DNA of 38,538 bases from the IMG/VR virus record IMGVR_UViG_3300050821_002954, positions 1 to 38,538 of that record; one strand, given 5' to 3'. Shown here one piece after another: positions 17,516 to 36,264 of this stretch. Every line of letters begins with the position of its first letter. The first letter of the stretch is position 1. The position numbers were made by a program, and so were the translations under genes. The DNA is from a virus. The notes under the pieces were generated by a model, which did not search any database, was not told the origin of the DNA, and saw only the letters and a program-made list of their open reading frames with translations.

Positions 17516-18055
17516 ATGGGTAACGCATCAACCGACTTCTTCACCGGAGGAGTCAAGCCAGCACAGTTCCCGCAATTAGGGGCCACCGCCAGCGGGAAAA
17601 TCCTCGACATGGTGCAGACACAGCAGACCACGCCGCAAGGTGAGCTGAAAACCTGGCAAGACGGCTCACCCGCAATGCAGCTCGTCATCACCATCCAAAC
17701 CACCGAACGCGACGACGCCGACGACGACGGGAAACGCACCCTCTATGTGAAAGGACAGATGAAAGCCGTGTTCGGTGACGCATTGAAAAGAGGTGCCGTA
17801 AAACAGCTCGACATCGGCGGCACCGTCACCGTCACCTACGTCGCGGACGGCGAACGCACCAACCCCGCATTCTCCCCGCCGAAACAGTACGCGGTGCAAT
17901 ACGTTCCACCCAACGCGAGCGCCGGGTTTCTGGGTGGCGGGAATGGAGTGGCCACCGCCACCGCTGAACCCGTACCCGCTGGCGTGAGCGCCGAAGTGTG
18001 GGCCACCCTGTCACCCGAAGCGAAAGCCGCATTCGCCAACATCAACGCCAAGTAG
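17516..18055 (+). CDS. possible OB-fold ssDNA-binding protein (179 aa)
   Basis: AGGAGA precedes ATG 17516. The central part (about 20-130) alternates strands in a beta-barrel-like pattern (SGKILDMVQTQQ, MQLVITIQTT, KRTLYVKGQM, GGTVTVTYVADG); the tail is Ala/Pro/Glu-rich and ends SPEAKAAFANINAK. Size, position in the replication block and the flexible acidic tail fit an SSB-type protein, but I recognise no signature. Followed by the structured RNA candidate. Confidence 0.55.
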   Translation: MGNASTDFFTGGVKPAQFPQLGATASGKILDMVQTQQTTPQGELKTWQDGSPAMQLVITIQTTERDDADDDGKRTLYVKGQMKAVFGDALKRGAVKQLDIGGTVTVTYVADGERTNPAFSPPKQYAVQYVPPNASAGFLGGGNGVATATAEPVPAGVSAEVWATLSPEAKAAFANINAK

Positions 18056-18067
18056 GTAACCCCGACC

Positions 18068-18198
18068 GGGAGTCGGGTTGCGCCACAACAGAATACGGCC
18101 AAGGGCATTCCACGGCTCAACCCCCGCCTTGGCCCAGCACCGGGAGAGATAGTTTCCAGGGCTCCCGCTTCCGGTAGCGAGTGCGCAACCCGACTCCC
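18068..18198 (+). ncRNA. structured intergenic RNA candidate (three-helix element)
   Basis: A perfect 16-bp inverted repeat closes the element: 18068-18083 (GGGAGTCGGGTTGCGC) with 18183-18198. Inside are GGCCAAGG (18097-18104) with CCTTGGCC (18127-18134), a perfect 8-bp stem, and CGGGAG (18141-18146) with CTCCCG (18162-18167), which can be extended by CC/GG pairs to 18173. Together they form a closed multi-branch structure of about 131 nt. No open frame. It ends 17 nt before the methyltransferase ATG, so it could be a cis-element, a processed small RNA or a MITE-like insertion. No known RNA family recognised. Confidence 0.6.
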
Positions 18199-18215
18199 CC
18201 ACAAAGGAATTCACC

Positions 18216-18800
18216 ATGACCATTCTTGACGAGCTGGCCTGCAAATACGGCACCGACAAGGGCTCGACCGAACACAACTACTGCGCCACCGTATATGAAC
18301 CACTCTTCGCGCACCTACGCCATCAGCCGATAGTGCTTGTGGAACTTGGCATTTGGGAAGGTGCCAGCCTGAAAATGTGGTCCGAATACTTCACCCACCC
18401 CGACAGGGTGATCGTCGGCGTCGACAACGTAGACCGATTCGACGCCGCCGTATGGCGCAACACCTACACCTACATCGCAGACCAGGCCGACGCCGACCTG
18501 CCCGTCGCGAAACTGCTGCCCAACATCATCATTGACGACGCATCACACATCAGCACCAAAACCATCGCCAGCTTCCAGAACTGGTTCCCCCACCTGAAAC
18601 CGGGTGGGCTCTACATCGTGGAAGACATCGTGACCTCCTACTACTACCCCGAAGACATTGAGCACCCCTGTAATACGGCGATGGAATTTTTCAAACGGCT
18701 GGCTGATCAGGTCAACAGATGGGGTGAACATGCACGGGATGACATTGCCTCAATATGCTTCCACCCCAACATGGTCATCATCAAAAAAGCAGGCACATGA
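18216..18800 (+). CDS. class I SAM-dependent methyltransferase
   Basis: A 194-residue protein. KYGTDKGSTEHNY near residues 10-22, VELGIWEGASLKMW as the SAM-binding motif I (about 42-55), VIVGVDN as motif II, IIIDDASH and PGGLYIVEDI downstream. This order matches small CmcI/TylF-like or sugar O-methyltransferases found in phages. AAAGGAA lies 8 nt before the ATG. Substrate unknown; sugars attached by the glycosyltransferase cassette are one option. Confidence 0.75.
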   Translation: MTILDELACKYGTDKGSTEHNYCATVYEPLFAHLRHQPIVLVELGIWEGASLKMWSEYFTHPDRVIVGVDNVDRFDAAVWRNTYTYIADQADADLPVAKLLPNIIIDDASHISTKTIASFQNWFPHLKPGGLYIVEDIVTSYYYPEDIEHPCNTAMEFFKRLADQVNRWGEHARDDIASICFHPNMVIIKKAGT

Positions 18801-18922: not shown

Positions 18923-19074
18923 TGAACACAGTAATCCAAACATGCATCACCACAGGCCCGCTGGAAGGTAGGCACCGCTGGTACTGCCGCGCCTGCCGTG
19001 CCCGTGGACCGGCAGAGGTAGACGGGCGAGTGGCCAAAGAGCAAGGCGCACGACACGTTTGCGAACCTAAGTGA
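18919..19074 (+). CDS. zinc-ribbon microprotein (51 aa)
   Basis: C at residue 9, then YCRACRARG and HVCEP: a C-x2-C...C site. Starts ATGATG; its TGA overlaps the GTG of the primase gene. Confidence 0.55.
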   Translation: MMNTVIQTCITTGPLEGRHRWYCRACRARGPAEVDGRVAKEQGARHVCEPK

Positions 19075-21209
19075 TCATTCCCCGGCTGCCCGACGACGCT
19101 GACAACCTCAGCGCCGCAATGCTTTACGCGCAAGCCGGGCTCTACCTGCTACCCGTCGAACCAGGCACCAAAAACCCCGGCAGCCGCGTCGGTTTGCAGT
19201 GGCAAGACAAATCATCCCGCGACCCCGAAACCCTCGCCGCCTGGTACGCCGGAACCAGCGACGGCATCGCCATAGACCTCGGCAGAAGCGGCCTCGTCGT
19301 CATAGACGTTGACAAACCCGACATGCTACCCGAATGGCTTGCCACCATGCTTCATTGGACACTGGCCGCGCCGTTCCAATCCACCCGGCCCGACAGTAAC
19401 CGTGGCCACTACATCTTCGCGCAGCCGCCGCAACGCCGAATAGGTTGCGGCAAAGGCGCACTCGCAGGCATGGGATTGGATGTCAAAGGTGCCGGTGGCG
19501 TCATCATCGCCCAACCCTCCGTCCATCCTGAAGGTGGCGAATACCGGTGGGTCGGCATCGCACCCCAAGGTTCTGAAATCCCGATACTGCCAAAACCACT
19601 CGACGAAATGCTGTACGACACAACACAAGCCGAATCCGCCGCCACCGACCAGGAAGTCAGCACGTTCACCACCGAACACACCGGATCAGCCCGACCCGCA
19701 CTCATCGGCAACTGGTACCGCAAATTCAAGCACGAAGTGCTACAAGGCAACTCTCGGCACGACACAATGGTGTCACTACTCACCGCCGCCTTAGAGGAGG
19801 CCCGCGCCGGATACTACCCGGCCCGCGACGTGATCGACGTGCTACGCGAAGCATTCATCGAATCATTCATCGACACCGGCACCGGGCGGCAGCTCACCGA
19901 AACACGCGCCCGCGCCGAATTCCAAGACATGCTGCCATGGTCCGTAGCACAAGCCAAACACACCCCACTAGCCGACATACGGACCAAGACAGAACACAAC
20001 ATCGGCAACGATTTTAGCGGCCTGTGGACGCCACCAGCACCGCAGCCCGAAGGGCGAGGAGCGACCCAAGCAGCTTCCCCGGTAGCACCTAGCCCGCCAC
20101 AGCCCGAAAAGCCGCCAGCGGGCCAGCCAGACCCGCTTATGAACGGTCACAGCCGCGTCCACTTCACCCGTGCCAGCGAAATCCGCTCCGACGTGCCGAC
20201 GTGGGCGTGGGAATACGACGGGCGCGGCAGAATCCAACGCGGAACCATGGCCATCCTCGCCGGACGGCCCGGCGCAGGCAAAAGCAACGCCGCAAGGTGG
20301 TTCGCAGCGGGATTCAGCAACGGCACCATGGCCGGATGCTGGCACGGCACACCCGTCTACGTCGCCTACATATCACCCGGCGAAGAATCACACCAATACG
20401 TCATCAAACCCGGCCTCGACGCCATCGGAGCCGACACCAACCGCGTCGTATTCCCCCACATCAGCGACGACGAAGGAAACGAAGCCCGGCTGATGTCAGC
20501 GGCACACCGAGATTTCCTCATCGAATCCTTCAAGACAGCAGGCATACGAGTGGTCATCGTGGACCCCATCATGTCCACCATCCCCGGTGCCACCAACATC
20601 AACCAGAACAACGAGACACGGGTCCACGTCGAACCATGGGCGCAGATAGCCGAAGCCATCGACGGAATCGTCCTAGGCGTATGCCATTTCACGAAGTTCC
20701 CCGGCAACGACCTGGTAGCCGCCATCAACGGATCGTCGGCATTCGGCGAAGTCGCACGGTCCATCTTCGGATTCGTCCGCGAAAAGAAAAGCGGCATAAG
20801 AGTATTCAGCCAGGTCAAAAACTCCACCGGCGTCGAGGATCTATCGCTGCAATACAAGATCGAAACCGCGCAAGTCCCAACCGATTCGGGCGGTGTCGCC
20901 GAAGTCGCCGCATTCAATATCATCGGGCGCAGCCAATTGAGCGCCGCCGACGTATTGGACGCGAACACCGAAGGTGAATTCGAAATCGGCGGCCCTGGAT
21001 ATGCAATGCAATGGCTCAGTGAGTATTTGACACAAGAGGGAGGAGCACCGGCTAAAAAGGTTATCGCACATGCCAAATCAGATCAGGACATTTCGCGGGC
21101 CACACTATACCGGGCCATGAAAGAGCTTGGCGTGGTGAGTTTTCGGGAGGGCTACCCCTGCACCGCGTACTGGCGGCTGCCGACCATCGAAGACCAGGCT
21201 GAGACATGA
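19071..21209 (+). CDS. bifunctional PrimPol and RecA-fold helicase
   Basis: A 712-residue replication protein. The N-terminal PrimPol domain (about 15-190) has VVIDVDKPD with the metal-binding D79-x-D81 and SNRGHYIF with H113. A Pro-rich linker (about 325-360, containing dispersed DNA element C) leads to a RecA/DnaB-like ATPase: Walker A G398-RPGAGKS-405, a Walker B-like strand VVIVDPIMS, and HFTKFPG as a possible motif III. The C-terminus resembles a winged helix. It would synthesise primers and unwind DNA at the phage origin. GTG start overlaps the previous TGA. The iteron region follows directly. Confidence 0.85.
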   Translation: MIIPRLPDDADNLSAAMLYAQAGLYLLPVEPGTKNPGSRVGLQWQDKSSRDPETLAAWYAGTSDGIAIDLGRSGLVVIDVDKPDMLPEWLATMLHWTLAAPFQSTRPDSNRGHYIFAQPPQRRIGCGKGALAGMGLDVKGAGGVIIAQPSVHPEGGEYRWVGIAPQGSEIPILPKPLDEMLYDTTQAESAATDQEVSTFTTEHTGSARPALIGNWYRKFKHEVLQGNSRHDTMVSLLTAALEEARAGYYPARDVIDVLREAFIESFIDTGTGRQLTETRARAEFQDMLPWSVAQAKHTPLADIRTKTEHNIGNDFSGLWTPPAPQPEGRGATQAASPVAPSPPQPEKPPAGQPDPLMNGHSRVHFTRASEIRSDVPTWAWEYDGRGRIQRGTMAILAGRPGAGKSNAARWFAAGFSNGTMAGCWHGTPVYVAYISPGEESHQYVIKPGLDAIGADTNRVVFPHISDDEGNEARLMSAAHRDFLIESFKTAGIRVVIVDPIMSTIPGATNINQNNETRVHVEPWAQIAEAIDGIVLGVCHFTKFPGNDLVAAINGSSAFGEVARSIFGFVREKKSGIRVFSQVKNSTGVEDLSLQYKIETAQVPTDSGGVAEVAAFNIIGRSQLSAADVLDANTEGEFEIGGPGYAMQWLSEYLTQEGGAPAKKVIAHAKSDQDISRATLYRAMKELGVVSFREGYPCTAYWRLPTIEDQAET
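20037..20065 (+). repeat. dispersed DNA element, copy C
   Basis: Same 29-nt element as copy B with one difference, in the linker between the primase and helicase domains. Encodes APQPEGRGAT-type residues. Confidence 0.65.
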
Positions 21210-21428
21210 TCGGGACAACCGGGAGACAACAGGCCTCGCGCGGGAAGAGAGATTGAGATAAGTAAGACAACTATCCTTACCAGTAGAAATGAGTGAGACA
21301 ACAGTGAGACAACAGAGTGAGACAACACAGCGTGAGACACACAGTTGTCCAGTCGTATCACTGTCTCACCGTGTTCCCCCGCATGACGTGTCGCATACTC
21401 GCGCACGCGCAAGAGATAGGAGAATCGA
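21210..21428. other. candidate replication origin with iterons
   Basis: Noncoding gap after the PrimPol-helicase gene. AGTGAGACAAC occurs three times exactly (21292-21302, 21303-21313, 21316-21326), with degenerate forms at 21221-21230, 21261-21271 and 21332-21340, and inverted forms at 21344-21349 (GTTGTC) and 21361-21370 (CTGTCTCACC). Iterons beside a replication gene are typical of initiator-binding origins. No CRISPR features and no open frame. Confidence 0.65.
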
Positions 21429-36002: not shown

Positions 36003-36264
36003 CATTGCCTGGGCCGCACTCATTGTCGGCGCGGTCGCCTACGAGCTGATGGCCAAAGACTTACTGAGCGATTCAGCGGATCGTTATAGGGCGCAACACA
36101 ATCCATGGATACTCAGGCTTCTACTCATAGCATTGGCAGGACATCTCGGCGGCATGCTGCCAGCATGGGCCGACCTGTTCAACGCCGGAAATCTGTTGCA
36201 CCGCTTCGCCCGTTGGGTGGTGGGGGTTGATGAGCGCGTTCTCACAAGTGTACCAACGGCTTAG
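35989..36264 (+). CDS. small membrane protein (91 aa)
   Basis: MEDADIAWAALIVGAVAYELM and WILRLLLIALAGHLGGMLP: two hydrophobic segments. Overlaps the portal end by 14 nt and the next gene by 35 nt in another frame. Similar short membrane proteins occur at this place in actinophages. Confidence 0.6.
   Translation: MEDADIAWAALIVGAVAYELMAKDLLSDSADRYRAQHNPWILRLLLIALAGHLGGMLPAWADLFNAGNLLHRFARWVVGVDERVLTSVPTA

What the first reader, a model, noticed from the sequence alone, without database searches (positions are those of the whole stretch)
18068..18198. 131-nt structured RNA candidate closed by a perfect 16-bp stem
A 16-bp perfect inverted repeat encloses two further stems (8 bp and 6+ bp), in one of the few sizeable gaps of an otherwise overlapping operon. 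Chance occurrence of 16+8 bp nested pairing is very unlikely. It could be a cis-regulatory leader of the methyltransferase, a processed small RNA, or a MITE-like element.
Basis: seen in the sequence. Interest (0 to 1): 0.8.

Follow-up and report, generated by a model that had tools for sequence, protein, structure and literature searches.

The report
Phage operon-boundary RNA hairpin
Between two genes of a bacteriophage related to those of mycobacteria lies a strong folded RNA, most likely an unusually large version of a hairpin that many related phages carry at this spot and that probably lowers expression of the DNA-copying genes that follow.

Summary
A perfect 16-bp inverted repeat (18068-18083 / 18183-18198) closes a 131-nt element with two inner stems. 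It is the strongest stem in the window, and such a repeat appeared in 2 of 400 shuffled windows. The window is an actinophage fragment related to Cluster K mycobacteriophages. The element starts 13 nt after the stop codon of an OB-fold, SSB-like gene (PHROG 1911).

Relatives show what this place is for. Directly after that gene, 53 of 67 distinct viral contigs carry a GC-rich 11-20 bp hairpin stronger than any of 402 control stretches. The stem sequence differs between lineages. In phage Adephagia this is the strongest stem of the right arm, and published RNA-seq reports high transcript levels for genes 44-65 and low levels for 66-83, a drop at the same gap.

I therefore read the element as a lineage-specific version of a conserved hairpin that lowers expression downstream, by partial termination or RNA processing. 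What is unusual is its 99-nt branched loop. One relative (L060) shares that architecture, with 1 compensated and 1 broken pair among 16; another may. It lacks a U-tract, matches no Rfam family, is single-copy, and is neither an ESAS nor a mobile element. No transcript data exist for this phage.

The parts
17516..18055 (+). Upstream gene, PHROG 1911 family, predicted OB-fold protein (SSB-like by fold and context; function inferred)
   Evidence: PHROG match E 2e-47; model pLDDT 88 with five strands and one helix in the core; Foldseek and VIA matches are OB-folds including SSB and RPA, none at E<=0.001, best Z 6.6
18068..18198 (+). 131-nt structured element, predicted three-way junction
18068..18083 (+). 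P1, 5' arm (GGGAGUCGGGUUGCGC)
   Evidence: 28 nt from 18068 are 89% identical to L060 5664-5691
18084..18095 (+). CACAACAGAATA, unpaired linker between P1 and P2; resembles a start-associated motif of related phages
18097..18134 (+). P2 hairpin, 8-bp stem
18137..18178 (+). P3 hairpin
18183..18198 (+). P1, 3' arm (GCGCAACCCGACUCCC); no U-tract follows
18057..18080 (+). Alternative small hairpin in which the upstream flank AACCCCGAC pairs with the P1 5' arm, exclusive with P1; not seen in L060
   Evidence: 18055-18083 folds to -13.3 kcal/mol
18203..18208 (+). Shine-Dalgarno-like AAAGGA of the methyltransferase gene, outside the structure
18216..18800 (+). Methyltransferase gene (Methyltransf_24)
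19071..21209 (+). Primase-polymerase of the replication module downstream

Best explanation
The element is the operon-boundary hairpin that follows the OB-fold (SSB-like) gene in this group of actinophages, in a variant whose loop has grown into a branched 99-nt structure. When the early operon is transcribed, P1 forms directly after the SSB-like message. It either makes part of the polymerases stop or marks the transcript for cleavage and protects the upstream 3' end. The SSB-like protein is then made in excess, and the replication genes behind it (here methyltransferase and primase-polymerase) are made at a lower level. Shown: the structure's sequence, the conserved position, and a published transcript drop at the same gene boundary in Adephagia. 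Inferred: that the window's version does the same, and by which mechanism.
For: Strong stem at the site. In 53 of 67 distinct regions after the PHROG 1911 stop, the stem score exceeds the maximum of 402 control regions from the same loci. The window's score (44) and offset (+13 nt) fall inside that set. Hairpins are present in Clusters K1-K8 and in Gordonia and Arthrobacter phages, with stem sequences that differ by lineage. In L325 it is a textbook terminator with a TTTTCATTTC tail. In Adephagia the gene 65-66 gap holds the strongest stem of the 26.6-kb right arm. Its RNA-seq reports genes 44-65 high and 66-83 lower or near undetectable (PMC11373665). Gene 65 is the PHROG 1911 homologue.
Against: All other clear hairpins directly after this gene have loops of about 3-32 nt, against 99 nt here, and the window has no T in the 8 nt after the stem. 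L060 carries an ordinary hairpin first and the long-loop element second, so the long-loop element may be an addition with its own role. The hairpin set mixes members with and without T-rich tails, so termination is not shown for the class. Some relatives lack the hairpin, and Hibiscus and Firecracker have almost no gap. The controls were random stretches, mostly coding; a control limited to other intergenic gaps was made only in Adephagia. No transcript data exist for this phage or its host.
Confidence: 0.58

Rival explanations
1. A dedicated regulatory RNA: the three-way junction itself (P2, P3 and the conserved linker CACAACnGAAUA) binds a protein, ribosome or ligand and conditionally controls the methyltransferase and replication genes, for example by shifting between the small upstream hairpin (18057-18080) and P1.
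For: The L060 homologue can form the same junction shape although its P2 and P3 sequences differ. The linker is nearly identical in both. An exclusive alternative hairpin is possible in the window. The model built from the two sequences ranks the element of L214 first in 627 kb (E 0.004).
Against: Only two clear members exist. The three-way fold of L060 is not its MFE (-48.5 against -49.6). P1 shows 1 compensated and 1 broken pair, no better than shuffles. The alternative hairpin is absent from L060. The second model hit (L216, E 0.007) is probably an unrelated GC hairpin, which weakens the L214 hit.
Confidence: 0.15
2. An endonuclease processing site (RNase III-like), as at the gene boundaries of phage T7 early mRNA, possibly releasing a stable 131-nt small RNA.
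For: Long perfect stem in a gene gap; many hairpins at this place lack U-tracts; the Adephagia authors themselves propose termination or RNA processing for another long stem (PMC11373665).
Against: Nothing specific to cleavage can be tested here. It would also fit the best explanation, which does not choose between termination and processing.
Confidence: 0.15
3. A leftover of module exchange: a start-associated motif and one hairpin arm remain from a lost gene (NrdH in relatives), and the methyltransferase was inserted; the inner fold has no function.
For: The ACAACnGAATA motif sits 18-36 nt before gene starts in Rando14 (8 of 9 sites) but precedes no start codon closely in the window. NrdH occupies this place in many relatives. 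In L060 the motif is followed by AGGA and an ATG in frame with the methyltransferase.
Against: A chance 16-bp perfect stem is unlikely, and P1 is kept in L060 at 15 of 16 pairs. This could explain the loop, but not the stem.
Confidence: 0.1
4. A mobile repeat (MITE-like) with 16-bp terminal inverted repeats.
For: Shape only.
Against: Single copy in the genome; no match in phages or plasmids; no partner arm in 58 contigs that share one arm.
Confidence: 0.02

Closest known systems
Hairpin in the gene 65-66 gap of Adephagia and its counterparts in Cluster K1-K8 phages
   Same: Directly after the PHROG 1911 gene, strong GC stem, upstream of the replication module; transcript level drops at this boundary in Adephagia
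   Different: Short loops (3 nt in Adephagia) and often a partly U-rich tail; the window has a 99-nt branched loop and no U-tract
Intrinsic (Rho-independent) transcription terminator
   Same: GC-rich stem soon after a stop codon
   Different: No U-tract, very long loop, SD and start codon only a few nt downstream
Cluster K Extended Start-Associated Sequence (ESAS; Pope 2011, PMC3203893)
   Same: About 17-bp inverted repeat in an early-region gene gap
   Different: ESAS are repeated, have spacers of mostly 4-13 bp, contain a SigA-like promoter and usually precede a SAS; this element has none of these
RNase III processing hairpins between T7 early genes (from general knowledge)
   Same: Long stems in gene gaps of an early phage operon
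   Different: Cleavage not tested here; no sequence relation tested

Membership tests
Conserved hairpin after the PHROG 1911 gene | Strong stem starting within about 5-30 nt of the PHROG 1911 stop | tested here: met
   Stem score 44, offset +13; class range 32-46.5
Conserved hairpin after the PHROG 1911 gene | Short loop (about 3-32 nt) | tested here: not met
   99-nt loop; hence 'variant of', not typical member
Conserved hairpin after the PHROG 1911 gene | Drop of transcript level across the hairpin | not testable with these tools
   Published for Adephagia only (PMC11373665)
Intrinsic transcription terminator | GC-rich stem | tested here: met
   16 bp, 12 of them G-C
Intrinsic transcription terminator | U-tract directly after the stem | tested here: not met
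   0 T in 8 nt; no hit in the terminator scan at this site on the + strand
Cluster K ESAS | Repeated copies, short spacer, internal SigA-like promoter, SAS downstream | tested here: not met
   Single copy, 99-nt spacer, no + strand promoter-like site in the element, no SAS-like site here
Any Rfam 15 family | Score against the family covariance model | tested here: not met
   No match even at E<=10
   No match with default filters; 5.4 bits with filters off, against 91-115 for members
MITE or other mobile repeat | Further copies in the same or other genomes | tested here: not met

The most novel reading that the evidence does not exclude
The three-way junction is a lineage-specific regulatory RNA that senses something during infection (for instance free SSB-like protein or ribosome loading at the CACAACnGAAUA linker) and so sets how much replication machinery is made.
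Probability: 0.1. Interest if true: 0.65.

Novelty: new variant of a known kind. Interest (0 to 1): 0.36.

Why it matters
If right, a single conserved hairpin sets the ratio of an SSB-like protein to replication enzymes across many actinophages, which is directly testable with existing phages such as Adephagia and TM4. I did not meet it as a named feature in the papers read here. The window's large loop shows how far such a site can be remodelled.

Tried and rejected
Rfam at the gathering and permissive thresholds: nothing. DNA search of phages and plasmids: nothing. The 14-mer arm pattern in viral contigs gave 58 chance hits without partner arms. The linker pattern in viral and genome contigs gave mostly chance hits; only L060 had the stem. 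ESAS identity was rejected. Origin of replication at this site is not favoured: iteron-like repeats and the cumulative GC-skew minimum lie near 21.2-24 kb instead. Similar-looking long-loop stems in Adephagia (L335 14164-14294) and Rando14 (L221 33653-33803) share no sequence with the element; the former is made of inverted iteron-like repeats. Membership in the R1 RNA was rejected. A whole-window z-score scan timed out; a coarser one did not sample the element in frame. Covariation is not demonstrated: two sequences, 220 of 500 shuffles equal the observed value. A search of three actinobacterial genomes for PHROG 1911 found nothing. The PDB fold comparison gave no family above E 0.001, so 'SSB-like' rests on fold type and context.

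Full report
1. What is there. The gap 18056-18215 separates a 179-aa gene from a methyltransferase gene. It holds a perfect 16-bp inverted repeat at 18068-18083 / 18183-18198. On the + strand, the strand of the genes, the RNA folds to -68.8 kcal/mol with z = -6.3; the other strand gives z = -2.1. The fold is a three-way junction with P1, P2 (8 bp) and P3. A perfect repeat this long within 140 nt occurred in 2 of 400 dinucleotide shuffles of the window. It is the top-scoring stem of the window. The ribosome-binding site AAAGGA (18203-18208) lies outside the structure, so the fold does not simply hide it.

2. Where it is. The window is an IMG/VR virus record, and the recognised genes around the element read rightward. 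The order is Cas4-like exonuclease, small genes, PHROG 1911 protein, gap, methyltransferase, primase-polymerase. Cluster K mycobacteriophages have the same order, usually with NrdH and HNH genes where the window has the methyltransferase. The PHROG 1911 protein is predicted as an OB-fold (pLDDT 88). Its structural neighbours are OB-folds such as SSB, RPA and the RuvBL DII domain, all weak (best Foldseek E 0.02, best Z 6.6). Context and fold suggest an SSB; this is an inference. For the Adephagia homologue gp65 the literature lists only weak matches (PMC11373665).

3. The decisive comparison. In 67 distinct viral-contig regions that follow a PHROG 1911 gene, the best stem within 200 nt beats the maximum of 402 control regions in 53 cases. 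The hairpin is present in Clusters K1 to K8 and in Gordonia and Arthrobacter phages. Its sequence differs by lineage; its place does not. The window's stem has the score (44) and offset (+13 nt) of this class. Its loop, 99 nt, does not fit: others have about 3-32 nt. The controls were random stretches of the same loci and hence mostly coding. Within Adephagia, where all gene gaps were compared, this gap still ranks first, although ESAS repeats in other gaps come close.

4. Link to expression. In Adephagia, gene 65 is the PHROG 1911 homologue. The gap to gene 66 holds the strongest stem of the right arm (43417-43457). The published RNA-seq states that genes 44-65 are at higher and genes 66-83 at lower or near undetectable level early in infection. 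The drop is thus reported at this gene boundary. The text does not give base-level positions, and the authors do not attribute it to a hairpin, so that link is mine. In L325 the counterpart has a classic T-rich tail. Many others, including the window, do not, so I do not call the window's element an intrinsic terminator. I say that it probably acts at an expression boundary, by termination or by processing.

5. What is special in the window. One viral contig, L060, has a homologous element between the same two genes. The first 28 nt are 89% identical, and the stem keeps 15 of 16 pairs with one compensated change and one mismatch. P2 and P3 have different sequences there. The junction fold is near, but not at, the minimum (-48.5 against -49.6 kcal/mol). 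L060 has an ordinary hairpin first and the long-loop element second. L214 has two hairpins followed by a shorter candidate, which a model of the two sequences found first among 627 kb (E 0.004). A probably unrelated hairpin scored E 0.007, so this support is weak. The linker CACAACnGAATA resembles a motif that in Rando14 stands 18-36 nt before annotated starts at 8 of 9 sites on the coding strand, against one site on the other strand. In the window no start codon follows it closely. It may be a remnant of an exchanged gene or a reused ribosome contact.

6. What it is not. No Rfam family. Not ESAS. Not a repeated or mobile element. Not a member of the covarying RNA that I met in Adephagia, Horchata and an M. 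abscessus prophage.

7. Verdict. Real feature, most likely a remodelled version of a conserved operon-boundary hairpin. The general hairpin is well supported by position statistics and by one published transcript profile. The mechanism and any function of the branched loop are open.

Noticed in passing
L335 3018-3127 (Adephagia record 36017-36126); L336 693-802 (Horchata, Cluster B); L337 656-764 (prophiGD03-1): A structured RNA, about 108 nt, closed by a 13-bp stem, shared by unrelated mycobacteriophages; 9 pairs with changes on both sides, no Rfam match in the Adephagia stretch. Blast with the Horchata copy matched 358 phage records. Its R1 model scores 91-115 bits on these.
   Followed up: partly
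window 2021, 2254, 2711, 2959, 5150: Five copies of a promoter-like repeat TTGACRTGTCCCCACAATGGGCGTACAGT, with an inverted CCCCAcaaTGGG between the hexamers; in most copies an ATG lies about 7 nt after the -10, suggesting leaderless, repressor-controlled starts.
   Followed up: no
L221 (Rando14) 4016-24400: Motif ACAACnGAATA stands 18-36 nt before annotated starts at 8 of 9 forward sites, against 1 reverse site; it overlaps the known SAS in part. A literature search for the motif letters found no description.
   Followed up: partly
window 21202-21370; L060 8729-8930; L335 14080-14290: Iteron-like repeats (GTGAGACAAC; GGCACAGAT in Adephagia) just after the primase-polymerase gene, near the cumulative GC-skew minimum of the window: candidate replication origin.
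   Followed up: partly
L221 33653-33803 (Rando14): A 19-bp perfect stem closing a further folded 113-nt loop in a large gap near the right end, z = -10.5; function unknown.
   Followed up: no
L060 5704: An ATG inside the homologous element, preceded by CACAACTGAATAGGA, in frame with the methyltransferase (33 codons upstream of its SD-proximal ATG).
   Followed up: no
window 18181-18219: A 12-codon GTG frame whose TGA overlaps the methyltransferase ATG (ATGA); may be chance.
   Followed up: no
window 4400, 380, 2600: Other 146-nt stretches with low folding z-scores (-4.65 to -4.96) in a coarse + strand scan.
   Followed up: no
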